24,234 bases of DNA from a virus, in the IMG/VR virus record IMGVR_UViG_3300008448_000630, positions 1-24,234 of that record. One strand, written 5' to 3'. Each line of letters begins with the position of its first letter. Position 1 is the stretch's first letter. The notes beneath the pieces are model-generated. The model was given only the letters and a program-made list of their open reading frames with translations. It did no database searches and was not told where the DNA came from. Positions 1-24,155 of this stretch are shown in pieces. The position numbers and the translations under genes are program-made.

Positions 1-87
1 ATGTCACATTCCTATAGCGCTAGACCCTCCCCGCTAGGTCATCACAACCAGGCCAGGGCTGGGTACTTCAACTTAGAATACCAAACA
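1..87. other. Non-coding end of window
   Basis: No gene starts in this stretch: both minus-strand ATG codons meet a stop within a few codons. It lies between the scaffold terminator and the next gene beyond the window. It would be the place for a promoter of the expected capsid gene, but I see no clear elements. Confidence 0.5.
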
Positions 88-89
88 TT

Positions 90-113
90 AAAAAAGGGCC
101 AATAACGGCCCTT
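90..113 (-). terminator. Intrinsic terminator after the scaffold gene
   Basis: On the minus strand AAGGGCC pairs with GGCCCTT around a six-base loop (101-106) and continues into a run of T (TTTTTT then AATG). It lies 19 bases after the scaffold stop. It is a convincing Rho-independent terminator and marks the end of the tail-fibre-scaffold transcript or a level-setting point before the next (probably capsid) gene. Confidence 0.85.
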
Positions 114-132
114 GAAGTATGTCAGGTTGGGG

Positions 133-885
133 TCAACCGAATGCTCGCTGGAACAGTTCTTCACGGGTAAGTGAGGACAAGTCTTCACCGGTAACACCGT
201 TAGAGTCAGTGCCGCCGTAGCCGATACCAGCACCAGATCCCTTGTTACCCTTAAAGAAGGTACCGTAGATCGGGTGGTTTTTGAACTGGCCCAGGTAGTC
301 CTCAGGGTTGACACGACGGCCCGAATCCTTGTCAAGGATCGGATCGCCAGCACTGTCAATCACGGTCACGCTGCCGTCGACTTCAAGACGAAACTGGCCA
401 CCAATTTGATTTGCTAGCATATCAAAGAAAGACACACCATCAGCCGAATCGGTGCGGCCGCCAGCGGAGAAGAATACCTTTTCAAGGGCGTAGCGCTTAC
501 GGAACTCTTGCAGTTCGCGATGGGCAGCATCTGCCTTCTTTGCAGCTTCAGCAGCTTGGCCGCCATACTTCTCTTCAAGTAGAGCAGTGCGTTCATCCGC
601 AGCGGCTTTCTCGCGGGCGGCGATCGATGCCTCCTCCTGCAGCTTGCGGTACTCGTCGGGATTGATCTGCGCAAACTTTTCTAGTTGCGCAGCTTTTTCC
701 TTTACTTCTTTCTCGTAAATTTTACGAGCTTCGCGTTCAGACTTCAAAGCCTTCAACAGGTTTTGAACTTCGTCTTCGCTATAAGCTTTGCCTTCGCCAA
801 CATCAATGTTGTCGGGGCTAGTATTAGGCATCGCGCTTGTCTCAAGCGACTGTGCGTTGTCTTCGGGCATTTTGCTAGGCGTCAC
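133..885 (-). CDS. Capsid scaffold-like protein
   Basis: The 250-residue protein is probably the internal scaffold that guides procapsid assembly. It has a long charged coiled-coil region (~35-135, EDEVQNLLKALKSEREARKI, then many E, K, A and R). A conserved-looking C-terminal domain follows (FFDMLANQIGGQFRLEVDGS, PILDKDSGRRVNPEDYLGQF, HPIYGTFFKGNKGSGAGIG) with a basic/Phe end (REELFQRAFG). This layout fits scaffold proteins encoded just before the major capsid gene in cyanophages and other tailed phages. The start is either GTG at 885 or ATG at 870 (MPEDNAQ...); neither has a Shine-Dalgarno. A strong terminator follows at 90-113, as expected before a separately controlled capsid gene. Confidence 0.75.
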   Translation of the reverse strand: MTPSKMPEDNAQSLETSAMPNTSPDNIDVGEGKAYSEDEVQNLLKALKSEREARKIYEKEVKEKAAQLEKFAQINPDEYRKLQEEASIAAREKAAADERTALLEEKYGGQAAEAAKKADAAHRELQEFRKRYALEKVFFSAGGRTDSADGVSFFDMLANQIGGQFRLEVDGSVTVIDSAGDPILDKDSGRRVNPEDYLGQFKNHPIYGTFFKGNKGSGAGIGYGGTDSNGVTGEDLSSLTREELFQRAFG

Positions 886-937: not shown

Positions 938-1810
938 TTACCCATACTGATACCAAGTATTGTTGCCTAGCGGTCCACTCGTCCACCGGTAAAGGATGGC
1001 AACCTCGGTCTCCATCATCGCCTGCCCCCCGGCATTGTAGCCGTAGCTGCCATATGGTTGCGGGCCACCGCCACAGGTGGACTCTCCAAAGTTATTATGG
1101 TTACAAGGAGCACATCCACAGCAACAAGCGCAAAAAGGTGGCGCACAGCCCAATGTAAACAATATGCCACAAGTTCCATTGTTAAAATTATCCTGGCATC
1201 CACCACAATTATTAAAAGCTCCGTTTATGGTTATATATGGCCACCATCTGTAAATGACAGTGCCGTTGCCAGTATTGCATCGAGTAGAACGGGCATTATA
1301 AACATTTCCATCATTGCCATAGTACTCATACCAGCCGAATTTGGGTAATGGATCATTCACGCCGATGGTAAAGTTGAAGACCATTGGCGAGCCGCTAGAG
1401 ACTATTGCCGCCGGAGCAGCAGTACTGCCCACCTGGGCTAGCACTGCTTCATAGTTTGCATTACATGTTTTTACCAGCGGACAAGAGCATAGTGAAGTGG
1501 CTCCACCAGCAAAATTAACTGTTGCCTGTGCTAGGGCATTGAGATCCCCGCTAAGCTTGTACGTCCTTTTGACGCCGTATTGAACTTGCAAGTTGCCCGT
1601 ACAGTCTCCGGCGCCACTGCCAGCCAGGCCCCTGCAGCCACCTTGGCACTCCTGAGTGTATGGATTAAAGGTTGCGAAGTCAAGGCACTTGCACGGGTCG
1701 TTGCAGTCATAGTATTGCCCCGTAAAGGTTCCGGTCGTAGCTTGGCATTTTGCCTCACATTTATTTAAATCAGGCGGACACAACCCCAGGACAGTTGTCT
1801 GTGAAGGCAT
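938..1810 (-). CDS. Cysteine-rich virion protein (24 Cys in 290 residues)
   Basis: The protein has a cysteine-rich N-terminal part (residues ~11-65: CPPDLNKCEAKC, CNDPCKC, CQGGC) and a central beta-like segment (PMVFNFTIGVNDPLPKFGWY). A second Cys cluster (~200-255) includes CAPPFCACCCGCAPC, with five of eight residues Cys at its core. The C-terminal end is Gly/Tyr/Trp-rich (YRWTSGPLGNNTWYQYG). No signal peptide is visible. It starts inside the zinc-ribbon gene (TAATG) with GGAG seven bases upstream, so the two are made together. I recognise no family. It is similar in character, though not evidently in sequence, to the 335-residue protein at 11062-12069. Likely an exposed virion or fibre component. 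Confidence 0.72.
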   Translation of the reverse strand: MPSQTTVLGLCPPDLNKCEAKCQATTGTFTGQYYDCNDPCKCLDFATFNPYTQECQGGCRGLAGSGAGDCTGNLQVQYGVKRTYKLSGDLNALAQATVNFAGGATSLCSCPLVKTCNANYEAVLAQVGSTAAPAAIVSSGSPMVFNFTIGVNDPLPKFGWYEYYGNDGNVYNARSTRCNTGNGTVIYRWWPYITINGAFNNCGGCQDNFNNGTCGILFTLGCAPPFCACCCGCAPCNHNNFGESTCGGGPQPYGSYGYNAGGQAMMETEVAILYRWTSGPLGNNTWYQYG

Positions 1811-2229: not shown

Positions 2230-2664
2230 CTAGATCGTTATCCGAAGTATTCCGCTAGCATCCCAAACTATCCTGTATTCGTCGCCAACCGGAGCGGACA
2301 CAACCTCTCCAAAGTTAACATAAAACAATGGAGGATCATCTACGACTGTGTCATTGTAAACCATAGCATGGGAAGCTGAAAGCGTAGCGGTTGACACTGT
2401 CCAGATTACGTTATCGGCATCCAGCATTGCATCATTGGTGGTTACCTGAGTCACCGCCCAGCCAGTGATAATTTTATCATCTTGAGTATAGCCATACTGA
2501 GTTGCCAATTGCGTCGCACCAGTTTCGGCAGCAGCTTTTGTTGTTGACGCCGCCGAAAAGGTAAACGCTGAGTATAAATTTACTTTATAAGTGTGGCTAG
2601 GTAAGAAAATTCCACCGGCAATTTTAGGCAAGGTATGGTCATAGATACTAATCGTTACGGCCAT
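2230..2664 (-). CDS. Small beta tail protein, copy 3 of three paralogues
   Basis: The 144-residue protein has the same layout as the copies at 8398-8829 and 12084-12500: VTISIYDHTLPKIAGG, HTYKVNLYSAFTF, YGYTQDDKIITGWAVTQVTT, NDAMLDADNVIWT, SASHAMVYNDT, PPLFYVNFGE and EYRIVWDASGI. It begins with ATG preceded by a very AT-rich leader with no Shine-Dalgarno in register (AGGTAAG lies about 16 bases up). It follows a LamG fibre, as do its paralogues. Probable fibre partner protein. Confidence 0.75.
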   Translation of the reverse strand: MAVTISIYDHTLPKIAGGIFLPSHTYKVNLYSAFTFSAASTTKAAAETGATQLATQYGYTQDDKIITGWAVTQVTTNDAMLDADNVIWTVSTATLSASHAMVYNDTVVDDPPLFYVNFGEVVSAPVGDEYRIVWDASGILRITI

Positions 2665-2708: not shown

Positions 2709-4073
2709 TTACCATGTGCTAAGATCCACTTTTTGCCATTGATTAGTGCCTGTTGCTATCAGCAATGCGTCCTCGTCCCTGGCGAGCTCGCCGTTGCGAC
2801 CGGGTTGAGTCCTGTAGACGACATCGGAAGTGCGCGACGCCCTCTCGGCAGCGGCCCACTCTAAAGTGCCGGAATTCCACTTCAGATACTGATTAGAAAG
2901 TGCGGTACTAGCGGATGGACCAACATCATCAAAATCCCTAAACTCAAATGCCGTAGTCTGCCACTGGGTAGATGTCCCATTAGTTCCTAGAGATATATGG
3001 CGATTACTTGGGTTTGAATGGGCTTTTATTGGAAGCGGATACGGACCGCTTGTCCCACTGTTCGGAATATATAGAGCAGCACCTTTGGTAACTCTGAATT
3101 CATCGATGTATCCATTGAACCTGTAGCCAGCAGCAAGTGGAGAGCCGCCAACGGTTAGGGTCGCATCGGTGGATGGCCTAAGGGGAGTCGCTACCGACGA
3201 TAACGTGGTTGTTCCATTCGCGAATATATACCAGTTGGTGCCGCCGTTCCAGCAAATCCCAAGATGTATCCATGCGTTTAGACCTACTCCTCCTAACGCG
3301 AGGTTAACACTACTGCCAGCCACGGCGAATCTTACGCTAAGCTGAGCGGATGTATTCGTTCCAAAGGTCCAATGGCTGCCAGTCGGGCCCACCGTAGCAT
3401 TGGGCCCGCCAGCCATGGCTATTATTTGGTTCGTGTTATAGCCAAGTTGGTATATCCATGCCTCTATGGTAAATGGTGCATCAAAAACATCTACGGCGTT
3501 TGGACCGCCTACAGTCAGATAGGTACCATCAACATTATTGAAATAGGCAGAAGTTCCACCAAATTTACTCTGTGCCGTACTGATTATTGGTGAACCGCTT
3601 GGCGTCACAGACAGATTGTTGAGGGAGCTGTCCGCAAAAGTGCCGTCAAAATGTAACAACGCTGCTGTTGTACTCTGTATCGGCAGCAATGCTTTAATTG
3701 CTTCTGGAACGGTTGATTTACCAGTTCCGCCTTTCGCGATTGAAACTGTGCCTGATATTTTGCTATTCTGAATAGTCCCATCTGGTATTTTAGCCGTGGT
3801 AACTGAATTGGCGTTCAGCACCATACTTGATGCACCCTCACCATTATTGCTGACTGTTATAGAACCTTTGTTTTCATTTTTTATATGACCAATAATTCTT
3901 TCGCTGGAATTATCAGCATCTAAAGAATGTAGATAAACACTACCAGCCTGTCTCTCGCATATCAACTCACCAGGTAAACAAGTATCTGTTCCGCCCGGTT
4001 CGATCGCAGTAGCTATCTGAACCTCGGAGTCTGCTGTACTCTTGTGCGCTATATGCTCGGGCTGGATTGTCAT
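2709..4073 (-). CDS. LamG tail fibre (454 residues) with LamG inserted in the scaffold
   Basis: This is the most compact version of the shared fibre scaffold. Residues 1-133 match the reference (PGELICERQAG, NENKGSITVSNNGEGASS, KGGTGKST, IKALLPIQ). Residues ~134-352 are a LamG domain (ALLHFDGTFADSSLNNLSV, SKFGGTSAYFNN, FTIEAWIYQ, YIDEFRVTKGAALY). The scaffold resumes as SNPSNRHISLGTNGTSTQWQ and ends with NQYLKWNSGTLEW and NQWQKVDLSTW. The protein stops exactly at the conserved STW that the two larger fibres continue beyond. It follows the 1416-residue gene after 45 bases and precedes a small beta protein after 44. Likely a receptor-binding fibre. Confidence 0.82.
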   Translation of the reverse strand: MTIQPEHIAHKSTADSEVQIATAIEPGGTDTCLPGELICERQAGSVYLHSLDADNSSERIIGHIKNENKGSITVSNNGEGASSMVLNANSVTTAKIPDGTIQNSKISGTVSIAKGGTGKSTVPEAIKALLPIQSTTAALLHFDGTFADSSLNNLSVTPSGSPIISTAQSKFGGTSAYFNNVDGTYLTVGGPNAVDVFDAPFTIEAWIYQLGYNTNQIIAMAGGPNATVGPTGSHWTFGTNTSAQLSVRFAVAGSSVNLALGGVGLNAWIHLGICWNGGTNWYIFANGTTTLSSVATPLRPSTDATLTVGGSPLAAGYRFNGYIDEFRVTKGAALYIPNSGTSGPYPLPIKAHSNPSNRHISLGTNGTSTQWQTTAFEFRDFDDVGPSASTALSNQYLKWNSGTLEWAAAERASRTSDVVYRTQPGRNGELARDEDALLIATGTNQWQKVDLSTW

Positions 4074-4118: not shown

Positions 4119-7100
4119 TTACCCGTTCGGGAACGTGGTATCGGGCCTCGTGAAATCAGATACGTAGCGAGCCACGCCTTTCGTAATTCGCAGGTCATCA
4201 ATATAACCCAAGAAATTTATGCCAATAGCACTACTGGTAAGGCCAGTCACGTCTACCGTGCTATTGAAAGAAGGCAATGTAAAGGAAGTTGAGCTACCGC
4301 TGGCCATGCTCTTCTGAGAGCCATTAACAAATATCCTGCACGTGCCTGAACTTCTGGTAAATGCCACATGAATCCAGGTATTGAGACAAACCGCTTGGGC
4401 GATATCTACGCTGTATATATCAGAAAGAGTGCCAACGTTTAAGCTTGCTTGTAACCTGTATCCAAATCCAGCATCTCCATACCTGAAGACAAATCCAGAG
4501 CCACCATAGTTAATAGAGAATATCGTTGGATTATTTGCGTAAACATATGGCACGGCACCACTCGTAGTAGATGTGACGTAAACCCAAGCTTCAACTGTAA
4601 AGTCGCCTGTTCCAAAGGCAAAGCCACTTGGTGTCCCCGTCGAGAGGTAGTCGCCAGTCCCATCAAAGAAAGCGCTCGAGCCACCAAATTTACTTCGCGT
4701 TGTACTGATCTGAGCGTTGCCGAAGGGAGTTATGGTCAAGCTATTCAGACTGCTATCAGCGAATGCCGTGCTACCATTCGTGCCATTAGCACGTAGTAAC
4801 AAACTGACATTACTGAAACTCGGATCGGTTACCACTGGATCGGGAACGTCGGGGAATGCAGTAGTACGTGGAATAAAATCCCCCACATAGCGGGCCACCC
4901 CCTTGGTGATACGAAGGTCGTCAATGTTGCCCTGGAAGTTCGTGCCAATCGTGACATTCGTCAGACTAGTTACGTTTGCTGTGCTGACAAAGGAAATAAA
5001 TTGGAAAAAGGCTGAGCCAGTGCCCACGGACAGGTATTGTTGATTGCCGTTAATGAATAATCGGCAAACGCTTGAACTTCTAGTGAAGGCAATATGAACC
5101 CAGGTGTTCAGGTACGTAGATTGCGAAATATTCGCGTAGTAAGTATTGGCCGCCGTGGCAGAATCGAGAGTTACCTGTAATCTATACACATACGGAGAAG
5201 CGCTGTCCGCATACCTGACAGTAAGGGAGGTACTCCCATAATTCATTGTCAATATCTGGGGAAATGATAAGGTGCTAGCCGTGATACGGACCCAAGCCTC
5301 GACTGTGAAGTCCCCAGTCCCGAAGGTTAGGGCACTTGTTATTGCGGGAGAAAGGAAGTCGCCCGTTCCATCGAACAGCCCACTCGAACCCCCGAACTTG
5401 CTTTGAGCAGTACTAATCTGTGCATTGCCGCTGGGAGTGACTGTCAACGCGTTAGGACTGCTGTCCGTAAATGTGGTGCTACCGTTGCTGCCATCCATGT
5501 GCAACAGGAGTCCAACGTTCGCGAAATGAGGGTCGGTTGACGACTCTGGTGGTACCGCTGTTGGGGCGGGTGGAAACGCGAAAGCCCTTGGCGTAAATGC
5601 TGTCCAGTAGCGTGCCACTCCCTTGGTTATCCTGACTTCGTCTATCCAACCCATGAAAACATTTCGAAAAGTATCAAGGTTGGTAAACGGCGTGTATGCT
5701 CCAATTCTCATAGGGGCGGTGGTTGCTGGGCAGAAGTCTGTAGTTATCGAAGTATCTGTTCCCACCTGTGTTCCATTAACAAACAGGCGGAGTACGTTGC
5801 CATTGCGTACTGCAGCAACGTGGTACCATACGCCCGCTGTCGAGAATGCGAAAGCGCCCGAGGCTGATCCCTGGGTCCCGCCACCGCTATTGAAGCCCCA
5901 CAAGAATTGCAGGGCACTGGTACCAGCGTAAAAGCTGAACACGTTTTCAGTAGTCGAAGCATTGGATTGAGAAACTATAGCGTATGTACTGGGTCCCTGG
6001 CCATTGACGAGAGTTGGTCTAATCCAGGCCTCTATTGTAAAGTTTCCAGTGCTAAAATGATGTACGCTACTTGCTGGGAAGGTTACGAAACTACCAACGA
6101 TACCCGGTCCCTCGACACCATTGAAGTATACACTTGCGCCGCCAAACTTGCTTTGTAAAGTGCTAATAAATGCTCCATTTTGAGCTGATTGCGTTCCATC
6201 GAACCTATACTGACTATTATCAACAAAACTATTGCTGCCATCTGCATTATCAAAGTGAACCAGTAGAGTAGTATTGTTAAAGAATTCATCAGCAACTCCA
6301 GCCAAGGGGGGATAAGTGAAACTAGCAGTTGTCATCGAAGGCGATCTTAATAGCGTGTAATTCCACGCGCTATAGGGAATGCGTCGCCATGTATTTGTCG
6401 CGGTACAGATATAAAGGTACTCCAGATCTTTAGACACTTGACCAGCCTTCCCGAGTGCAGTTGGACTAGCTGGAGTTGGCCAAGATATGTTTTCAGTTGG
6501 AACCCAGTTAGAGCTGGTCGAGTCCCACCTAAGGCACTGGTCATTTTCGGCGATAGTCTGAGGCAACGCGCTATTGACGATCTGGGCTCCGCCAACGGAA
6601 GTTATAGCTAATGCATTAGTACTAGAATCCGTAAATGTTGTCGAGCCGCTAATCCCGTCCATTCGAAGCAGCGCACTGACACTGGACCAGTTCGGGTCAC
6701 TGACTCCCTCCAGGAAAGGCGCGGTGGGCGTGAAGTCCGCGCTATAACGGGCGACACCTTTCGTGACCCGGAAATTATCCAAGTAGCCATTGAGGAAGTA
6801 AGAGGCCGCGTCGCCCAGTCGCCCTATTACGCAGCCAGTGGCGAGCGATAGGGTTACGCTATACGAGTACTCCGAATCCCTTATCCCGTTAATGTAATAG
6901 CGCCATGTCGTACCGCTTCGAACCAAGGCGATATGATTCCATTGATTCAGGGGAATTGTGGATGCCGATAACGCTCTGTCAGCACCATTCGAGAAAACCT
7001 GAAGCTTGCCCGTCGATGTGATATACCACACCATTGCGTTGACCCTTGAACCCGTGCCGCCGATCGGAATGGTGTCAAAAATTGAGTAATTATTATAAGA

Positions 7101-8369
7101 AGTTATATATATCCAAGTCTCAACCGTGAAATCACCGGTCCCAAAGGCAAGAACAGCGTTTGCCGGCAACGTTAGATAGCTGCTGGTTCCATTGAAGAAG
7201 CCAGCATTGCGACTGGCAGTGACAAGAGTATTTACATCGTTTAAAGCATTTACCGAAACAATGCCACTGCCAGAGGACAGCCCATAGGTTTGCCAAGTAA
7301 TATTTGAGCCATCCGTAGTCAATACCTTGTTAGTATTACCGGCCTGACTTGGCAATAATGCGCTAATAGCAGCATCTCTTGTAGCCTGGCCCGTGCCACC
7401 ATTCGCAATTGCTACTGCAGCGGATAATTTCGTATCAACAATAGTACCATCTAGAATTTTTGAATTAGTAACGGCGCCATTGTTCAAAACAAAGCTAGTA
7501 GATCCGTAACCATAGTTTGTTACGGTTAGAGAACCTTTGTTCTCATTCTCAATTCCGGCACTTAATTGAGCGACTGTTCCACTTGTAGTATTCGCTAAGA
7601 TCCTAACCTCTCCGCTTGCTCTTTGCAGCACTACTTCCCCATTTACTAGCTGATTGAGGTTGGTCTCGAATGGGGTGGCCTGTGGCGTAAAATTAGACGG
7701 GTAGTGAGCAAAGCCTTTAGTAACTCTAAGCTCGTCAATATAACCGCTAAAGGGAGAGCCTGATTCGTTGTTGCTGATACCTACAAGCACATAGGGAGTT
7801 GGGCTTGCGTAACTTGTTGCATCAACATAAGTTGAACCAACCTGTGTGCCATTTAGGAACATCCTCGTTGATCCAGAACTTCTGCATACGGCAACATGGC
7901 TCCAAACATTGGCTGGAACCACTGAAGTCGTTGCTATCCTCTCGACAGACCCACTGCCAATAAAGCTCAAATAACTATTCGCTGTAACCCCTATCGCCAG
8001 CCCGCCAGTGGCCAGTCCCTGACTACCATCGTACAACCGCTGCAAAGCAGTACCCACTCTGTAAACCCACATTTCAATGGTGAAGTCACCCGTACCAAAG
8101 GCGAACGCCGCAGACGGAAGAACTCTTAAGTAGTCACCAGTTCCGTCAAAGAATATGCTGCTTACGCCAAACTTACTTTGCGCTGTGCTAATCCTGGCAT
8201 CGCCGAGGGCCGTTACTGTTTTCGGGACGCTGCTACTGTCGATTATTGTTGTACTGTTATTAACACCGTCTCCATGCAGGAGAAGGGAGTCGGCCGTTAG
8301 GTTTCCTCTAGTTGCCTCAACACTGTCTGTTGTATTTTTTAATACAATTCGTTGCGGAAATACCGACAT
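4119..8369 (-). CDS. Giant LamG-repeat tail fibre (1416 residues)
   Basis: This is the largest adhesin here. The order is: FPQRIVLKN start (1-22); LamG1 (26-234) inserted in the scaffold; rest of the scaffold (239-380, NGEVVLQRASGE, NENKGSLTVTNYGYGSTSF, NGGTGQAT, ALLPSQAGNTNKVLTTDG); a LamG in permuted order (383-597); a second scaffold module (603-671, ENDQCLRWDSTSSNWVP, YLYICTATNTWRRIP); then LamG3 (697-933), LamG4 (945-1174) and LamG5 (1181-1416). Each LamG carries F.TGDFT.E.W, W.H.A..R....R.F.NG and D..R.TKG.A.Y. LamG4 and LamG5 are close relatives. The gene follows the 143-residue protein after 28 bases and has no Shine-Dalgarno. Likely role: binding host surface glycans or proteins with several lectin-like heads. 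Confidence 0.85.
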   Translation of the reverse strand: MSVFPQRIVLKNTTDSVEATRGNLTADSLLLHGDGVNNSTTIIDSSSVPKTVTALGDARISTAQSKFGVSSIFFDGTGDYLRVLPSAAFAFGTGDFTIEMWVYRVGTALQRLYDGSQGLATGGLAIGVTANSYLSFIGSGSVERIATTSVVPANVWSHVAVCRSSGSTRMFLNGTQVGSTYVDATSYASPTPYVLVGISNNESGSPFSGYIDELRVTKGFAHYPSNFTPQATPFETNLNQLVNGEVVLQRASGEVRILANTTSGTVAQLSAGIENENKGSLTVTNYGYGSTSFVLNNGAVTNSKILDGTIVDTKLSAAVAIANGGTGQATRDAAISALLPSQAGNTNKVLTTDGSNITWQTYGLSSGSGIVSVNALNDVNTLVTASRNAGFFNGTSSYLTLPANAVLAFGTGDFTVETWIYITSYNNYSIFDTIPIGGTGSRVNAMVWYITSTGKLQVFSNGADRALSASTIPLNQWNHIALVRSGTTWRYYINGIRDSEYSYSVTLSLATGCVIGRLGDAASYFLNGYLDNFRVTKGVARYSADFTPTAPFLEGVSDPNWSSVSALLRMDGISGSTTFTDSSTNALAITSVGGAQIVNSALPQTIAENDQCLRWDSTSSNWVPTENISWPTPASPTALGKAGQVSKDLEYLYICTATNTWRRIPYSAWNYTLLRSPSMTTASFTYPPLAGVADEFFNNTTLLVHFDNADGSNSFVDNSQYRFDGTQSAQNGAFISTLQSKFGGASVYFNGVEGPGIVGSFVTFPASSVHHFSTGNFTIEAWIRPTLVNGQGPSTYAIVSQSNASTTENVFSFYAGTSALQFLWGFNSGGGTQGSASGAFAFSTAGVWYHVAAVRNGNVLRLFVNGTQVGTDTSITTDFCPATTAPMRIGAYTPFTNLDTFRNVFMGWIDEVRITKGVARYWTAFTPRAFAFPPAPTAVPPESSTDPHFANVGLLLHMDGSNGSTTFTDSSPNALTVTPSGNAQISTAQSKFGGSSGLFDGTGDFLSPAITSALTFGTGDFTVEAWVRITASTLSFPQILTMNYGSTSLTVRYADSASPYVYRLQVTLDSATAANTYYANISQSTYLNTWVHIAFTRSSSVCRLFINGNQQYLSVGTGSAFFQFISFVSTANVTSLTNVTIGTNFQGNIDDLRITKGVARYVGDFIPRTTAFPDVPDPVVTDPSFSNVSLLLRANGTNGSTAFADSSLNSLTITPFGNAQISTTRSKFGGSSAFFDGTGDYLSTGTPSGFAFGTGDFTVEAWVYVTSTTSGAVPYVYANNPTIFSINYGGSGFVFRYGDAGFGYRLQASLNVGTLSDIYSVDIAQAVCLNTWIHVAFTRSSGTCRIFVNGSQKSMASGSSTSFTLPSFNSTVDVTGLTSSAIGINFLGYIDDLRITKGVARYVSDFTRPDTTFPNG
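4122..5537 (-). repeat. Tandem duplicated LamG domains 4 and 5
   Basis: The last two LamG domains of the giant fibre (encoded at 4848-5537 and 4122-4829) align over their full length. Shared blocks include GNAQIST, SKFGGSS, FDGTGD, FGTGDFTVEAW, FTRSS and DDLRITKGVARYV. They are closer to each other than to LamG1 or LamG3, so they probably arose by a tandem duplication within this gene. The six-residue linker between them is proline-containing (DVPDPVV region). Confidence 0.8.
6579..7223 (-). repeat. LamG domain in permuted order
   Basis: Residues 383-556 (6702-7223) carry the later part of a LamG domain, from GFFNGTSSYL through FGTGDFTVETW and WNHIALVRSG to DNFRVTKGVARYSADFTP. They lack the usual opening strand. 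Residues 557-597 (6579-6701) carry only the usual opening part (DPNWSSVSALLRMDGISGS, then TTFTDSSTNALAITSVGGAQ) and then change into scaffold sequence. The two pieces together make one complete domain with the halves exchanged. Confidence 0.72.
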
Positions 8370-8397: not shown

Positions 8398-8829
8398 CTA
8401 GGTTACTGTGAATGTAAATATGCCATTCGCGTTCCAGCCTATTCGGAATTGCTGCCCGTCACTAACTGATTCCATTGCATCAAAGTTCACGAAAGCCACC
8501 GGAGGTTCGCCGGCGTCTGACGCATTGTATAATATAGCATACGCCGCCGTTATAGAGCCCCCTGCTGCGGTCCACACAGCATCGTCTGCGTCGAATTTTG
8601 CGTCATTTGTCGTAACCGTGCTCACGACTACGTTTGTAAGTGTTTGGCCGCCAGTCGTGTACCCAAAACTGTTAGCGGTCTCGGTGCCACCTGTAGAGGC
8701 CAAGGTCGTATGAGTTCCATCAAATGTTGCTGCTGTTAGCAATTTTACCTTGTAAGTATCAGACGGGCTATTTGCACCATTAAGGAACCTGAGTAAAGTA
8801 TTATTATAAATACTGACGGTAACTGGCAC
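8398..8829 (-). CDS. Small beta tail protein, copy 2 of three paralogues
   Basis: The 143-residue protein starts at GTG. The start is supported by alignment of MPVTVSIYNNTL with MAVTISIYDHTL of the copy at 2230-2664. Shared blocks are SDTYKVKLLTAATF, FGYTTGGQTLTNVVVSTVTT, NDAKFDADDAVWT, AAYAILYN and PPVAFVNF. It is clearly closer to the 144-residue copy than to the 138-residue one, so these two are the more recent duplicates. It sits between the 721- and 1416-residue LamG fibres, with gaps of 38 and 28 bases. Probable fibre partner; function otherwise unknown. Confidence 0.75.
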   Translation of the reverse strand: MPVTVSIYNNTLLRFLNGANSPSDTYKVKLLTAATFDGTHTTLASTGGTETANSFGYTTGGQTLTNVVVSTVTTNDAKFDADDAVWTAAGGSITAAYAILYNASDAGEPPVAFVNFDAMESVSDGQQFRIGWNANGIFTFTVT

Positions 8830-11061: not shown

Positions 11062-12069
11062 CTAGCACCCTGGTTCGAGTGGATTTGTAATGCATTGCAT
11101 TGTTGTCGGGTCGCATTTAGTGCATGCTTTGCAGTCATCGTTACATCTGCAGGCATTTAAGCAGGCCGCAGGCGGCTCCCAGTCCTGACAGGTCTCATAG
11201 TAATATCTAGTTTCATTCGTGACTGGATTGTAAAAATAGCCCGCTTCAGTAGTGGTGTAACCCGTAGGAGTGTACGGTATTGCCCTGTCTGGGTCATACT
11301 CGCCCGAGACGTCCTCGTAAACTGACGAGCACAATCCTCCCGGCTCTTGGCATTCCGAGCAAGGTGCGTCCGCGTATATAGTCTTACCATCTACGGTAAT
11401 ACTTTTTAGTAAAGCTAGTGAACCGTTTAAGCCGGGGGAGCAATGAATATATCCTGTAGGTTCTCCGCATTTCGTAAATGCTCGACAGGGCCAGCAAGCT
11501 TCATCTTCGTACCAATAGCCATCATCCGAACACAATTGACAGACTCGTGGCTCGTTGCACCAGCACGGCCCACTGTTGTTTAGCTTACATTTCGTTCCGC
11601 CAAAACCGTCGCTATTACAGCTTTCGCATTCATCACAATAATTGCCATCACAGCCGGCTGGTAGTGGGCTCGTTATATTGTTTTGATAAAATGATGTGCA
11701 AAATTGACTGCACTCTTTCTCTGAAGTGGGACAATCGCCGCAATTGCATATTACATATCCAGCACCAAATCGACAGCACCTAGTGCCGCAGCAGTCTTGC
11801 GCCAAACATGAAAGACCTGGAGTCGATTTTCCGCATTCACTTCCGCAGGAAGTCGTACCAGTTCCGCAGTCTTCACTTGCTTTTTGGGGATCAAGGAACG
11901 TGCATTTGTTGTTTATGCATGCATATCCCGACGCACACTCTTCCGTATTGTAGCATGCAGTTCCACCAAGGATAGCTCTGGTGACACCAGTACTCAGGAA
12001 TTCCTCTGCGGCACCTGCTCTTGCCTGATTATACCTCCTAGAATCAAACCACGAAGAAAAGGAAGCCAT
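11062..12069 (-). CDS. Very cysteine-rich virion protein (42 Cys in 335 residues)
   Basis: An N-terminal helix-like segment (SSWFDSRRYNQARAGAAEEF, to residue ~35) is followed by a region packed with cysteines, 42 in all (12.5%). They are often spaced as small disulfide or metal knots: CYNTEECASGYACINNKC, CCGTRCC, CNCGDC, CDECESC, and CRCNDDCKACTKC near the end. The first motif resembles the C....C..G..C...C repeats of EGF-like or Dickkopf-like small domains. Residues ~245-285 are a Cys-free Tyr/Thr-rich spacer. There is no signal peptide, so folding in the reducing cytoplasm would suit zinc binding or disulfide formation after lysis. It lies between LamG gene pairs, which suggests an exposed fibre or tip component. 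The function is unknown. Confidence 0.75.
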   Translation of the reverse strand: MASFSSWFDSRRYNQARAGAAEEFLSTGVTRAILGGTACYNTEECASGYACINNKCTFLDPQKASEDCGTGTTSCGSECGKSTPGLSCLAQDCCGTRCCRFGAGYVICNCGDCPTSEKECSQFCTSFYQNNITSPLPAGCDGNYCDECESCNSDGFGGTKCKLNNSGPCWCNEPRVCQLCSDDGYWYEDEACWPCRAFTKCGEPTGYIHCSPGLNGSLALLKSITVDGKTIYADAPCSECQEPGGLCSSVYEDVSGEYDPDRAIPYTPTGYTTTEAGYFYNPVTNETRYYYETCQDWEPPAACLNACRCNDDCKACTKCDPTTMQCITNPLEPGC

Positions 12070-12083
12070 GTCAGGCTGTGTTA

Positions 12084-12500
12084 CTAGTTTTGCAGGGTAA
12101 TAGTGCTGGCATTGATTATCAAGGTGCCCAGGCTGCTGACCGCGTCAAAGCCGAAATCGGTATAGGCTACCAGCTCGTCTGCTGATGATGCGCCACCCCT
12201 GGACTTGTAGTAGACGCAGCCGCGTGCAGTGATTGAGCTATTATTCCATGAGACTGCAGTAAATTGAATCACCACCTTGTCATTGACGGTGTCCTTGGTC
12301 ACGGTCACGACGGGGGTGACGCCGCCAGCTATGTAGCCAACCCCGGTAGCTTCGTTGGTTACGTCAGAACGCTTTAGGTGGGTATCTTGATTTGGTGTAT
12401 AAGCACTAGTTACCAGCATCACCTTGAAGGTGTCCGTGTCGAAGTCAATGGCGCCACGGGCGATATCGTCAATAGCCGAGTTATAGATCAGGGATGCCAT
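12084..12500 (-). CDS. Small beta tail protein, copy 1 of three paralogues
   Basis: The 138-residue protein has the order: FDTDTFKVMLVTSAY, a GVGYIAGGVTP turn, VSWNNSSITARGCVYY, and a final strand set with VAYTDFGFDAVSSLGTLII. This matches a family of small phage tail proteins, usually annotated hypothetical, with the layout DT.KV.L / GY..GG / V.W....A....Y / F. Two more copies lie at 8398-8829 and 2230-2664, each after a LamG fibre. I infer a fibre partner, cap or attachment role. The ATG follows the LamG stop by eight bases and lacks an obvious Shine-Dalgarno. Confidence 0.75.
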   Translation of the reverse strand: MASLIYNSAIDDIARGAIDFDTDTFKVMLVTSAYTPNQDTHLKRSDVTNEATGVGYIAGGVTPVVTVTKDTVNDKVVIQFTAVSWNNSSITARGCVYYKSRGGASSADELVAYTDFGFDAVSSLGTLIINASTITLQN

Positions 12501-19053: not shown

Positions 19054-19413
19054 CTAGTTTGCCAAAGGCGGCATATTGGCCAATGCCCTGTATTTATTTA
19101 CATTATCAAGACCATAGCCGCCCAAATATCGATGTTTATTGTCGGCAAATGCTGCTCGAAAACTGTCGACCGAATTTACCGCAACCTCGAATACTCGATC
19201 GAACTCACTCAGTAATATGATCAGTACATCCTCCCCTGGGGAATCCTCCTCCAGTGCCTTTACTACTGCAATCCTGCAATATGCCAAGCAGTACATTAAA
19301 TCTTCTTCCGACATTTCCTCTATTGGGCAATCTGGCAATATTGGACCCGGCACAGCAAGTGCATTTTCCCAATAGACCTTAGCGATATCTTCCGGTGATC
19401 CAAAAACAAACAT
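19054..19413 (-). CDS. Small acidic protein of unknown function after the tape measure
   Basis: The 119-residue protein is acidic, mostly helical in appearance and without a domain I recognise. It is translationally coupled to the tape-measure gene: the tape stop TAA and this ATG share one base (TAATG), and an AGGT lies about eight bases upstream. Its middle is helix-like (EEMSEEDLMYCLAYCRIAVV) and acidic (EEDSPGED). Tail assembly chaperones are usually small acidic helical proteins encoded just before the tape measure, and none is visible there. This gene is the nearest candidate for such a role, but its position is wrong for a classical G/GT pair, so the idea is speculative. Confidence 0.7.
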   Translation of the reverse strand: MFVFGSPEDIAKVYWENALAVPGPILPDCPIEEMSEEDLMYCLAYCRIAVVKALEEDSPGEDVLIILLSEFDRVFEVAVNSVDSFRAAFADNKHRYLGGYGLDNVNKYRALANMPPLAN

Positions 19414-22400
19414 TAACGGTACCTATTACGCTTGATCTTGGTTAATTCTACCAGAATGTCAGAGGCTGCTTTTGTTGTATTAGTAGACTGGATCGTTACG
19501 TTGTTTGTAACCCTGCCCTGAGGCGCTCCAAGGGCTGCGCCGAGTACTTTAGCGAGGGAATTATCACGCTTGGCCGAGGAGCTCCTTACAGCCGCTGTAG
19601 CGCCACTGTTGACGCGTGTGCCGCCAGTCGGTATATTTAGGCCGGCAGTGATATGGGCCGGGATGATGGCGCCAGCGCCAGGGGCGGTCCACTGGCCCCA
19701 CGCGGGAGCATTGATATACGAAAGCCTGCCAGTATTGCTGAGGAATGCCTCACGGCCAAGCTCGTTAACCGTATACGTCGTACCTCCAGACACAGGGCCG
19801 CCCGCCCAGTTCGAATCGCCTGGTAGCCGCAATTGGAGAGAAGGATCCCTTTCACTTGACCCGCTATTGCTAGCAGTGCTACTAGGGCGCCTTTTCGTCG
19901 GCTTGTTCAATTCTGCCGTTATTTTTTTCTCGGTCTCAAGTATGGCGTCCGCCCAGCCAAGTCCGTCCTTCAATTTATCATTATACGCCTGCCTTGCAGC
20001 CGCAAGTTTATCCTCTTCCGTTTTAAGTTCCTTGGTTTTATTTAATATTTCAGTTTGTAATGGCAGAATTTTGGCCGCATATTCATCGGTTACTTTCTTC
20101 TTGTCGGCCTCGGCCTGTTCTTCAGCCAGCCTGTTCGCCTCGCGTCGCTTGTCTATTTCCTGCTGAATTTTATCCAGCTCTTTCTCTCTTTCTAGCTTGC
20201 GCTGGTAATCAGCCTCTTCTCGTTCGATTTGCTGCTGTTTTCTTTGCTCTTCTTTTGCGGCCCTTTCCGCTTCTATTTTTGCAAGTTCTGCTTCTTTTTG
20301 TTGTTGAAGTGCAGCAATTTGCTCCTCTCGCGCCAATCTCTCAAGCTGGGCTTTAGCTTGAAGCCTGTCACGTTGCGTTTCGCCTTGGGATGCCTCCCTT
20401 TGCAAGTCTCTTTTGTCTAATGCCGCTAATTGTGACTCGGCGGCAGTTGGGCCCTGGAGGCGATTAATTTTCTGGTCATAAACCTTGGCGACGGCTGCCG
20501 CCAGCTTGGCCAGGCGCTCTATTTCTTGATTGTAGGCACGATCCTGTAATTGGCGGCTCCTTTCTATTGCTGCATCTTGAGCAGCATAACGCTTTTCTGT
20601 TGCCGCCTTGGTCCTCTCAAGCCCCTCTATCTCTTTGTCCCTTGCCCTCGTAGTTTCTTGCGTTGTTTTATCAATTCTTTCTATTTCCTTGTCCCTTTCG
20701 CCTTCAAGATCTTTTATCTTTGTTTGATTTCTTTCTTTTATAGCCGCTAGTTCTTCCTTTAATTTCTCTACATACTTCGCTGATGCGGCAATTTGCTTAT
20801 TGTATTGCGAAACATCAACGCCGGCAGCGGCAGCCTTTGCCAGCGTAGCTATTTTTAATGCCTTGTTTGCTGCAATTTCTCCTCTTGTAACAGCAAGCAG
20901 GGTTTCATGTGATTTCCTGGAGGCTTCAGTTGTTGGCAGTTCTTTTTGTAGCGATTGCAGGTAAGCATTCAGTTGAGCATCATTTTCATCATAAGCTGCC
21001 ACCAATCCTTTGGTGCTTTCCGCAAGCTTGGCGGTTGATTCCTTGCTACCATCAGATGCTGCTATCTGCTTCTTGAATAGCTCAATGTTTTCTACCATTG
21101 CGGAGCGGAACTCCTGCTGGCCAGCGACAAGTTTCGCGGTCTCGGCCTGGAATGAAGCTTGCTCTAGATTTAATTGCTGGAAACCAGGGATCAGTGAACC
21201 AATTGTGTTTATAAACCCTTGGAAGAAATTGACAAAACCATTAGATCTTTCCGCTAGTTTGGCCTGCTCTGTTGCCGTTGCACCAACCGCACTCTTAAGT
21301 TGGTCATAGGATTGAGTTGCGGCCGCAAGTGAAGTCTTGGTTCTTTCATTGACGGCATTTACACCTGATTGAGACTTTGCCCAGCCGTCGAATGCAGCGG
21401 CAAGTGCTCCAATGATTACTGTTGGTCCAGCAAAGGCCCTCAGCCCGCTGGCAGCTACCTTGAATCCCCCAGCAAGTCCCTTAAGGGGTGCGGCAATGCC
21501 GGTCAGGGTGGTCCTAGCAGCGCCAAGTCTTTGAGTATAGGTCGCCCATTTTGTGCCGGCATCGAACGCTTTCTGACCGCTTGCAACCAGGTTTCTATTG
21601 ATCGGTGCAAGTTTTGCGGCAGCCTTGTCGGCCATCCCGCCAGAGTTCTGCAACGCCTTTGCGTAAATCTTCCAATTAGAAATAGCGCCAGTGACTCCGG
21701 TACGGAGCCCCCCGACAGCACTGCCCACACCTTTTATGGCCGGTCCGATTCTGCTTAAGACCGGTCCGGTCCCCAACAGGTACTTGCCAAATTGTGCTAC
21801 TTTCCCGCCTGCTGCGCCGAGGACTGTGCTGAATGCGTTAATGGCTTTGCCACCGGCAGTCACCGTACCAAATCTACCGGCCGCTACGGCCGCAGCATTG
21901 ACAGCACCCGTAAAGCCAAGCGCGGACAGCGCCCCCTTGCTGAGTGCGACACTGAAGGCTATCGCTCCTATAACGGCCTTGGCCAGAGCGCCAACCAGCA
22001 GAATGGCTAATATTAGGCCTATCGCTTTTGCTACCGGCTCTATTTCCAGTAACTTGCTTACAAATTTTGCAAACGGATCGAGGATTTGGACTAATATTTT
22101 GATTAATTCTGTCAATACTTTCAACAGTTCGACGAACCCACTGCCTACTGCACCCAAGATGGCGCCAAGTGCTTTTACAGTCTCACTCTTCGCTAGTGCT
22201 GCAAATAGGTCAGTGATAACAGCCTGAAGCTGTAGGCCGGCTTGGATTGCAGGCTTGAAGCTGTTTCCCAGTTTCTCCAGTGAAAGTTGGTTTATAGTTG
22301 CTATTTTTGACTGAATCTGCTGGGTGGTTACGCCAACAGTGCCAAAAGCATTGGCAGCATCAAGGGCACTCTTTCCAAGCTTGCCGTAAACCAGTGCAGA

Positions 22401-23441
22401 TTTATCTAGTAATGGTAACGTTTTCAGCAGAACAGCATTCGTAATTTCACCATTTTCGACCATCTCACCAAACGCCTGTGACGTGACGCCAAGCGCATTA
22501 GCGAAATCAACACGAAATGCCTGGTCTGCTTCAGCGATTTGCTGGTTTAGTTCTTCTGAACGTAGGGCGCCCTTGCCGAATGCCTGAATGATTGCGTTCG
22601 TGACCCTTTTAGCCTCGTCTGCAGTCTTGCCAAATGCCGCAAATCGTGAAGACAATGACTGCGTAATCTTTGATACGTCATCCAGAGATCCGCCGGACTG
22701 TAGGATTACAGGTGAAAGCTTAAGGAATCCTTCCCTTACAGTATTAAGGTCAACGCCAAGATTTAACGCAATTCGCGATGCTTCGGCCAGCGCCTTAGTT
22801 CCGCCACTTGCTCCTTGTCCAATCGCCTGAAACGTAAGACCTATTTGTTCAACCCCTTTCAGTGAGTTGACAAGCGTATTAGCTAAGGCAGTTACCTGCT
22901 GGATGATAATCGATACGCTCTGGAATCCATTTACCAGCTCACTGACGCCTCTGCCGAAAGACTGCAGGCCCTGTACATTAAGACCTATCTTAACTCGATC
23001 CCAGAATGAACTAGCACTAGCCAGTTGCAGTGCCCTATTGAGCTCTAATACCTTCCGGTTTTGTGCTTCCCATACGGGATTTATCGTTATAACCCTTTTG
23101 CCATATTTATCAACGCCTTCTACAAGTTTTTGAGTTTGATCCCTGGTCTGCTTTGTTGTATTTAATATTTGTTGCAGATTAGTCTTGCTGCCATTCTGGA
23201 CCTTATTTGCTTTATCATATGCTTTAGCTATATCATCTACTAATCTTATCTGCTCTTCCGCCGTTACCCTAAGCTCCTTTCCGTCTACCTGCAGCCTTAA
23301 TTTAGCAGTGGCCTCTATACCGAGGGCCTTGGCGACTTCATTCGCTGCTGCCTTGCCTTCCCTGACAAACGTGTCAAAAATCTGCTGGATCGCCTGCGGT
23401 GAGACTGAGGGATCAATTAGAAGATTGACGACGCTTGCCAT
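19413..23441 (-). CDS. Tail tape-measure protein
   Basis: This large protein (1342 residues from the ATG at 23441) sets tail length and probably takes part in DNA ejection. Residues about 290-340 carry the conserved tape-measure N-terminal pattern (GALRSEELNQQIAEAD, then LGVTSQAFGEMVENGEIT). A long hydrophobic stretch rich in A, I, L and V covers about 415-525. A charged coiled coil rich in E, K, Q and R covers about 895-1175. Near the C terminus, about 1215-1265, is the NELGREAFLS ... GAIIPAHI pattern seen at the end of many tape measures. An in-frame TTG at 23450 would add three residues; I prefer the ATG because it lies five bases after the stop of the +1 tube frame. The stop overlaps the next start as TAATG. 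Predicted tail length is about 200 nm (inference, 0.15 nm per residue). Confidence 0.95.
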   Translation of the reverse strand: MASVVNLLIDPSVSPQAIQQIFDTFVREGKAAANEVAKALGIEATAKLRLQVDGKELRVTAEEQIRLVDDIAKAYDKANKVQNGSKTNLQQILNTTKQTRDQTQKLVEGVDKYGKRVITINPVWEAQNRKVLELNRALQLASASSFWDRVKIGLNVQGLQSFGRGVSELVNGFQSVSIIIQQVTALANTLVNSLKGVEQIGLTFQAIGQGASGGTKALAEASRIALNLGVDLNTVREGFLKLSPVILQSGGSLDDVSKITQSLSSRFAAFGKTADEAKRVTNAIIQAFGKGALRSEELNQQIAEADQAFRVDFANALGVTSQAFGEMVENGEITNAVLLKTLPLLDKSALVYGKLGKSALDAANAFGTVGVTTQQIQSKIATINQLSLEKLGNSFKPAIQAGLQLQAVITDLFAALAKSETVKALGAILGAVGSGFVELLKVLTELIKILVQILDPFAKFVSKLLEIEPVAKAIGLILAILLVGALAKAVIGAIAFSVALSKGALSALGFTGAVNAAAVAAGRFGTVTAGGKAINAFSTVLGAAGGKVAQFGKYLLGTGPVLSRIGPAIKGVGSAVGGLRTGVTGAISNWKIYAKALQNSGGMADKAAAKLAPINRNLVASGQKAFDAGTKWATYTQRLGAARTTLTGIAAPLKGLAGGFKVAASGLRAFAGPTVIIGALAAAFDGWAKSQSGVNAVNERTKTSLAAATQSYDQLKSAVGATATEQAKLAERSNGFVNFFQGFINTIGSLIPGFQQLNLEQASFQAETAKLVAGQQEFRSAMVENIELFKKQIAASDGSKESTAKLAESTKGLVAAYDENDAQLNAYLQSLQKELPTTEASRKSHETLLAVTRGEIAANKALKIATLAKAAAAGVDVSQYNKQIAASAKYVEKLKEELAAIKERNQTKIKDLEGERDKEIERIDKTTQETTRARDKEIEGLERTKAATEKRYAAQDAAIERSRQLQDRAYNQEIERLAKLAAAVAKVYDQKINRLQGPTAAESQLAALDKRDLQREASQGETQRDRLQAKAQLERLAREEQIAALQQQKEAELAKIEAERAAKEEQRKQQQIEREEADYQRKLEREKELDKIQQEIDKRREANRLAEEQAEADKKKVTDEYAAKILPLQTEILNKTKELKTEEDKLAAARQAYNDKLKDGLGWADAILETEKKITAELNKPTKRRPSSTASNSGSSERDPSLQLRLPGDSNWAGGPVSGGTTYTVNELGREAFLSNTGRLSYINAPAWGQWTAPGAGAIIPAHITAGLNIPTGGTRVNSGATAAVRSSSAKRDNSLAKVLGAALGAPQGRVTNNVTIQSTNTTKAASDILVELTKIKRNRYR

Positions 23442-23472
23442 TGAGCTCAATAGTCTTGTTTAGACTGCCAAG

Positions 23473-23519: not shown

Positions 23520-24155
23520 TCAGGGGGTGGGGCTAGGAGCGGGGTTGGCGTCAAGGTCAATACGGTAAGCCCCGTAGCCTTGAAGGGTGGCCTCCCAGGA
23601 CACGATAGCGCCGGCCTCGATCGACTCGGTATAGCCACTCAGGGTGCCGTAGCCATAGATGGTCTCATCGGTGCCCGTGGGGCCCACACGAGCGAACTTC
23701 ACGCGAAGGCTGTCAGCCACAGTGTTCTGCTCAGCAAGGCGCAGGATCTGGTAGCCAGCATCCTTGAAGTCAGCCACGCCAGACAGCGACACGCTCCAGG
23801 TCTTGGAAGTAGGCACCGACAGGTTGAAACCCTTGGTCTCGTCGTCGTAGGTCAGGATTTCTTCCGAGTTGGTATCGGTTTCCAGGGCTGCATTGGTCAG
23901 ACCGTACAGACGGGCCACCTTGTCGAGGCCGTCCATGTCGAAGGCGGTGCCGGCAACCGTGAAAACGCCGTTGGTGTAGGTGACCGAAGAGGTCGGAGCG
24001 AGCACGTTGGCGTTAGAGGTGCCAAGGTTGATGAATGCAGTACTGCCGGAAGTACCGGTACCCGTGGTGATGCCAGTGAAAGCCGTATCTACATCGGCGG
24101 AGGCCAGGGGCATAATGTACACATTATAGCCAAAGGCCGCTGAAAAGTTTGCCAT
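23520..24155 (-). CDS. Major tail protein (tail tube subunit)
   Basis: The 211-residue protein is probably the subunit that polymerises around the tape measure to form the tail tube. Its length, its place directly before the tape-measure gene, and the segment around residues 118-140 (KTWSVSLSGVADFKDAGYQI, followed by a leucine-rich strand) fit the TP901-1-like major tail protein family. In that family a W..SLSG.AD.kD..Y pattern sits in the central beta-sandwich. The start is ATG with no clear ribosome site. The protein ends in a proline-rich tail (ANPAPSPTP) and the last codons are CCC-ACC-CCC-TGA. CCC-T is prone to +1 slippage, and the +1 frame stays open for about 24 more codons. A short C-terminally extended form is therefore possible. 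The family call rests on pattern and synteny, not on a search. Confidence 0.8.
   Translation of the reverse strand: MANFSAAFGYNVYIMPLASADVDTAFTGITTGTGTSGSTAFINLGTSNANVLAPTSSVTYTNGVFTVAGTAFDMDGLDKVARLYGLTNAALETDTNSEEILTYDDETKGFNLSVPTSKTWSVSLSGVADFKDAGYQILRLAEQNTVADSLRVKFARVGPTGTDETIYGYGTLSGYTESIEAGAIVSWEATLQGYGAYRIDLDANPAPSPTP

What the first reader, a model, noticed from the sequence alone, without database searches (positions are those of the whole stretch)
6579..7223. LamG domain encoded in circularly permuted order
Residues 383-556 carry the LamG body without its opening strand. The missing opening (DPNWSSVSALLRMDG ... AITSVGGAQ) comes directly after it at 557-597, then the scaffold resumes with ALPQTIAENDQCLRWD. 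Together the two pieces are one complete domain with its halves exchanged. Flanking LNDVNT and ENDQCLRW align with adjacent segments in the 721-residue fibre, so the permuted unit is also an insertion. Concanavalin A is a classic permuted jelly roll, so this could fold. It might have arisen by inserting a tandem LamG array out of phase.
Basis: partly seen in the sequence, partly recalled or inferred. Interest (0 to 1): 0.68.

Follow-up and report, generated by a model that had tools for sequence, protein, structure and literature searches.

The report
Circularly permuted LamG in cyanophage fibre
A fibre protein of a virus of cyanobacteria carries one sugar-binding-type (LamG) domain whose first strand has been moved to its end, next to ordinary copies of the same domain; several lines of evidence say that the rearranged copy still folds as a complete domain, so it catches circular permutation between close relatives, although both strand orders are already known from other protein families.

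Summary
In the 1416-aa fibre protein (4119-8369, minus strand), a LamG body without its opening segment (residues 384-549) is followed by that segment (558-598), then by scaffold. The unit sits in a scaffold loop that is uninterrupted in two relatives. It is not a broken remnant: AlphaFold2 gives pLDDT 91 and pTM 0.90, with the displaced segment at 93-97, and purifying selection on that segment (dN/dS 0.08) is close to that on correctly placed ones (0.02-0.06). The order recurs: a relative carries two such units, one in a slot where this protein has an ordinary LamG, and all 80 fetched cyanophage gp7-type contigs have it. Across 123 other non-redundant phage LamG arrays a trailing segment goes with a missing leading one (Fisher p = 3e-8). 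The closest ordinary-order body is 55% identical.

The model is collinear with whole pentraxins, laminin LG domains and PAPP-A. The neighbouring 'normal' LamG matches AbnA domain 4 and clostridial neurotoxin HCN domains, which have the opposite order. One polypeptide thus holds both known circular permutants. Verdict: real; new variant of a known kind; function inferred only.

The parts
4119..8369 (-). ORF of 1416 aa: fibre/tail-tip structural protein with five LamG domains (four opening-body, one body-opening)
6723..7220 (-). LamG body without leading opening (residues 384-549); PF13385 77 bits, profile positions 1-142 of 151
6576..6698 (-). Displaced opening segment (residues 558-598, DPNWSSVSALLRMDG...GGAQIV), with no body after it
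7227..7244 (-). Left scaffold flank LNDVNT (residues 376-381)
6501..6548 (-). Right scaffold flank ENDQCLRWDSTSSNWV (residues 608-623)
7680..8303 (-). N-terminal slot LamG in ordinary order (residues 23-230); the orthologue in L009 has a body-opening unit at this slot
4140..6290 (-). C-terminal tandem array of three ordinary-order LamGs (openings at 694, 946, 1182; last body ends 1410), the in-protein comparison

Best explanation
Residues 383-598 are a complete, folded LamG (concanavalin A-like) jelly roll in which the strand that opens the neighbouring LamGs is encoded last and closes the domain from the C-terminal side. It sits as a guest in a loop of the fibre scaffold, which suits a fold whose two ends lie together. 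It most likely arose when a piece running from the body of one LamG to the opening of the next was copied out of phase from a tandem LamG array. Shown: order, insertion, constraint, recurrence, and kinship to ordinary-order domains. Predicted: the fold. Inferred: the copying event, and that the domain, like other fibre LamGs, binds a cyanobacterial surface ligand, probably a glycan.
For: (1) AlphaFold2 of residues 375-605 with 48 related sequences: mean pLDDT 91.4, pTM 0.90; blocks covering the displaced segment 95, 93, 96, 97; LLRMD predicted as a strand. (2) The model is collinear over residues 11-230, displaced segment included, with complete solved domains: 4dqa Z 21.8, PAPP-A Z about 20, CRP 5..206, SAP 4..204, laminin LG5. 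(3) Control, opening-body-opening from the same protein: solved matches span model 1-228 only, end before the spare opening, and are ordinary-order domains (AbnA domain 4 Z 20.8; neurotoxin HCN and NTNH), a different set from (2). (4) Window against L009: displaced opening dN/dS 0.08 (14 synonymous changes in 31 sites, 5 nonsynonymous in 92; Fisher p = 1.4e-6); ordinary openings 0.02-0.06; adjoining scaffold 0.11-0.16. (5) L009 has two such units, about 54% alike, in two slots. (6) 80 of 80 gp7-type cyanophage contigs read body-opening. (7) Strand accounting in 123 non-redundant non-gp7 arrays: leading only 81, trailing only 19, both 5, neither 18; odds ratio 0.058, p = 3e-8. (8) Nearest ordinary-order body L116 is 54.7% identical (87/159); the three permuted bodies form one group (SH-aLRT 93) beside it (88).
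Against: Coordinates of the models could not be read, so strand pairing is inferred from pLDDT, pTM, secondary structure and collinear matches. In the control the spare opening also had high pLDDT (83-94) although its strand was lost and pTM fell to 0.75, so pLDDT alone does not show docking. Most of the alignment behind model 1 came from tandem arrays cut at body-opening. Tree supports are modest (quick search). 18 arrays show no detectable opening on either side. Docking into a neighbouring chain of the fibre is not excluded.
Confidence: 0.84

Rival explanations
1. Broken remnant: the body lost its opening, and the trailing opening is the stump of a second LamG deleted from a tandem array; neither is a complete domain.
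For: The linker and the opening look exactly like the start of the next array member. In the L009 N-terminal unit the opening has lost the Asp of its D-G motif (LLLHMVG).
Against: Opening under purifying selection like functional ones; confident compact model; same order kept in L009 twice, in 80/80 gp7 contigs and in other lineages; trailing openings occur mostly where the leading one is missing.
Confidence: 0.06
2. Strand exchange between chains: the trailing opening completes the LamG body of a neighbouring subunit in the fibre rather than its own body.
For: Phage fibres are usually oligomeric (general knowledge), and a C-terminal strand on a linker could reach a neighbour. Not tested here.
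Against: The single-chain model is confident, and its solved matches (pentraxins, LG, PAPP-A) close their domain within the chain (the latter part from general knowledge of these structures).
Confidence: 0.05
3. An ordinary LG/pentraxin-type domain with body-opening order by descent, never permuted within phages.
For: Strand order and fold match pentraxins and LG domains.
Against: The closest relatives by sequence are phage LamGs in the opposite order (L116, 54.7%), with the permuted group among ordinary-order ones. The linker motif DPxFSNVSLLLHMDG is that of phage tandem arrays.
Confidence: 0.05

Closest known systems
Laminin_G_3 (PF13385) domains of phage fibres in ordinary order, e.g. L116 residues 630-847 and this protein's own residues 946-1168
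   Same: Body sequence (54.7% identical to L116), opening motif LLLHMDG...TFTDSS, array linker
   Different: Opening segment before the body instead of after it
Pentraxins (CRP, SAP, PTX3), laminin LG and neurexin LNS domains, PAPP-A LamG
   Same: Fold, and end-to-end strand order of the model (VIA Z about 15 to 20)
   Different: Low sequence identity (about 12-19%); animal proteins; no evidence here for their calcium or ligand sites
AbnA domain 4 (5hon), N-terminal HC domain of clostridial neurotoxins, NTNH
   Same: Fold; they match the ordinary-order LamG of the same protein
   Different: Opposite strand order to the unit reported
gp7-type baseplate wedge initiators of Prochlorococcus/Synechococcus myoviruses (P-HM1, ACG-2014f)
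   Same: Body followed by an opening with no further body, 80/80 contigs
   Different: The break appears to lie elsewhere: gp7 keeps the xVTxxGxAQISTAQxKFG strand in front of the body; sequence about 30% identical
Circular permutation between CBM families (Montanier et al. 2010, doi 10.1074/jbc.M110.142133; title seen only as a reference in PMC4444583)
   Same: A carbohydrate-binding module family related to another by circular permutation
   Different: Between families, not between close homologues or within one protein; paper not read (not held)

Membership tests
Laminin_G_3 (PF13385) | Score above Pfam gathering cut-off | tested here: met
   77.0 bits against 27.6, profile positions 1-142 of 151
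Laminin_G_3 as it appears in most phage tandem arrays | Opening segment immediately before the body | tested here: not met
   Leading flank -0.2 bits; opening found after the body at 78.8 bits
Concanavalin A-like lectin/LG fold | Jelly roll matching solved members over the whole domain | tested here: met
   pLDDT 91, pTM 0.90; Z 21.8 to 4dqa, 194 residues aligned, rmsd 2.6
Pentraxin / LG topology | Closing strand at the C-terminal end, collinear with the solved domain | tested here: met
   Model 12..229 against CRP 5..206 and 13..228 against laminin LG5 2935..3117; on a predicted model, first and last aligned residues only
Pentraxin | Calcium and ligand site residues, pentameric assembly | not tested
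   Structural resemblance only; sequence identity about 13-17%; not filed as a pentraxin
Carbohydrate-binding domain | Demonstrated glycan binding | not testable with these tools
   Inferred from fold and fibre context

The most novel reading that the evidence does not exclude
In phage LamG arrays the opening strand is an exchangeable part that can serve the body before or after it, so recombination at any phase of the array yields foldable domains. Circular permutants would then arise repeatedly, be inserted as guests in fibre loops, and replace ordinary-order domains at the same site (as in the N-terminal slot of L009 against the window).
Probability: 0.4. Interest if true: 0.65.

Novelty: new variant of a known kind. 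Interest (0 to 1): 0.52.

Why it matters
Circular permutation is usually inferred between distant families. Here body domains 55% identical exist in both orders, and orthologous fibres carry one or the other at the same slot, so the step from tandem array to permuted single domain can be followed in sequence and tested at the bench. It also shows that Pfam Laminin_G_3 boundaries, which leave out the movable strand, hide the difference, so such units can be misread as truncated.

Tried and rejected
Broken-remnant reading: rejected on dN/dS, model, recurrence and strand accounting. Assembly artefact: unlikely, since the unit is on two further contigs. pLDDT of the opening as sole proof of docking: not accepted, because the spare opening of the control also scored 83-94. 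Direct reading of strand pairing: impossible, no coordinates returned. DNA direct repeats at the junctions: only short repeats (26-29 nt) in corresponding LamG codons, no clear insertion scar. Sequence search of the PDB with the unit: weak, body only; with the alignment profile: body only in the best matches. Literature: searches joining circular permutation with LamG, pentraxin, laminin G or jelly-roll lectins gave no report of permuted LamG domains in phages; the library is partial. L175 (body first, 78% identical to a body in an L179 array) is a weaker pair, because the phase within the L179 array is ambiguous. Not settled: the phase of L011- and L017-type arrays, whose openings are too diverged to score surely. 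At a looser threshold (5.2 bits) 8 of 84 gp7-type frames show a weak leading score; at 6.7 bits none of the 11 non-redundant ones does.

Full report
What the window is. The window is a 24,234-base virus record carrying a siphophage tail and head module on the minus strand: tail tube protein (23520-24155), tape measure (19413-23450), tail-tip proteins, a run of fibre proteins, and a head scaffolding protein (133-885). Its tail proteins are closest to Synechococcus phages S-CBS2 and S-CRES1-3 (tail tube 55-65% identical), and the gene order agrees. It is most likely a cyanophage of that group.

Checking the observation. The 1416-aa fibre protein has five LamG domains (PF13385, five stretches). 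Two HMMs were built from the LamG pieces of the window and L009, one for the opening segment (O) and one for the body (B). They read the protein as O23-61 B62-230 | B384-549 O558-598 | O694-736 B737-928 O946-986 B987-1168 O1182-1222 B1223-1410. The unit at 384-598 is the only one in the window in body-opening order. Its leading flank scores -0.2 bits and its trailing flank 78.8 bits against the opening HMMs, where the 99.9th percentile of unrelated segments is 6.7 bits; the displaced opening was one of the nine seeds, so its own score is inflated.

Does it fold? AlphaFold2 of residues 375-605 with 48 related sequences gives mean pLDDT 91.4 and pTM 0.90. Residues covering the displaced opening score 93-97 and contain the strand LLRMD. 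The model matches whole solved domains in sequence order from residue 11 to 230: 4dqa (Z 21.8), PAPP-A (Z about 20), pentraxins (CRP 5..206, SAP 4..204) and laminin LG5 (2935..3117). In other words, the displaced opening falls where pentraxins and LG domains have their C-terminal strand.

Control. The same protein's stretch O4-B4-O5 (residues 944-1224) was modelled with 48 related opening-body-opening sequences: pTM 0.75, O4 in strands, O5 without the LLL strand but with pLDDT 83-94. Its matches are a different set and end at about residue 228, before O5: AbnA domain 4 (Z 20.8), clostridial neurotoxin HCN domains, NTNH. So the two kinds of LamG in one polypeptide correspond to two known strand orders of one fold. 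pLDDT alone did not discriminate docked from spare openings; the difference in collinear matches did.

Is the displaced opening maintained? Between the window and L009 (1432-aa orthologue, IMG/VR 3300044701_004230) the displaced opening has 14 synonymous changes in 31 sites and 5 nonsynonymous in 92 (dN/dS 0.08, Fisher p = 1.4e-6). The three ordinary openings have 0.02-0.06, the permuted body 0.05, the adjoining scaffold 0.11-0.16. A stump would be expected to drift towards 1.

Recurrence. L009 has a second permuted unit in the N-terminal slot (residues 22-243, about 54% identical), where the window protein has an ordinary LamG between the same scaffold flanks. In gp7-type baseplate proteins of marine cyanomyoviruses all 80 fetched contigs read body-opening. 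The break there appears to be in a different place, so this is probably a separate event (inference). Further cases are a unit within a glycine-rich protein (L124) and three adjacent frames of L163 that end in an opening, one of them a 249-residue frame that is little more than one such unit. Across 123 non-redundant arrays outside gp7 the counts are leading only 81, trailing only 19, both 5, neither 18 (odds ratio 0.058, p = 3e-8). Of the five 'both', at least three are frames cut by a contig end. The strand is moved, not lost.

Origin. The permuted bodies of the window and L009 form one group (SH-aLRT 93) whose sister (88) is the last body of an ordinary-order array in L116; this group lies among ordinary-order bodies. 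The window and L116 bodies are 54.7% identical (87/159). The stretch joining body to opening is the linker of tandem arrays. This is inference; no scar was found.

Function. Fibre LamG domains are expected to bind surface glycans or proteins of the host. Nothing here tests binding. The adjacent position of the two chain ends in this fold makes it a natural guest for a loop (inference).

Known or new. Both strand orders are known in the fold, and the concanavalin A-like fold is listed among those with many non-sequential structural relations (PMC2213659). No report of permuted LamG domains in phages, or of both orders in one protein, was found in the partial library searched. I file it as a new variant of a known kind.

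Noticed in passing
L009:3903-4598 against window 7680-8303: Orthologous fibres carry opposite LamG permutants at the same N-terminal insertion slot.
   Followed up: partly
L035-L114; L024, L025, L026, L033: LamG of cyanomyovirus gp7-type baseplate proteins is uniformly body-then-opening, with a break that seems to differ from that of the window unit.
   Followed up: partly
L163:6381-7127: A 249-residue stop-to-stop frame that is essentially one body-opening LamG; the two frames before it also end with an opening.
   Followed up: partly
L124:4638-6209: A body-opening LamG lies within a glycine-rich protein of fibre-tip type.
   Followed up: no
window 938-1810 and 11062-12069: Two cysteine-rich proteins (290 and 335 aa) among the structural genes; not examined.
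   Followed up: no
window 2230-2664, 8398-8829, 12084-12500: Three similar proteins of about 140 aa interspersed with the fibre genes, probably paralogues; not examined.
   Followed up: no
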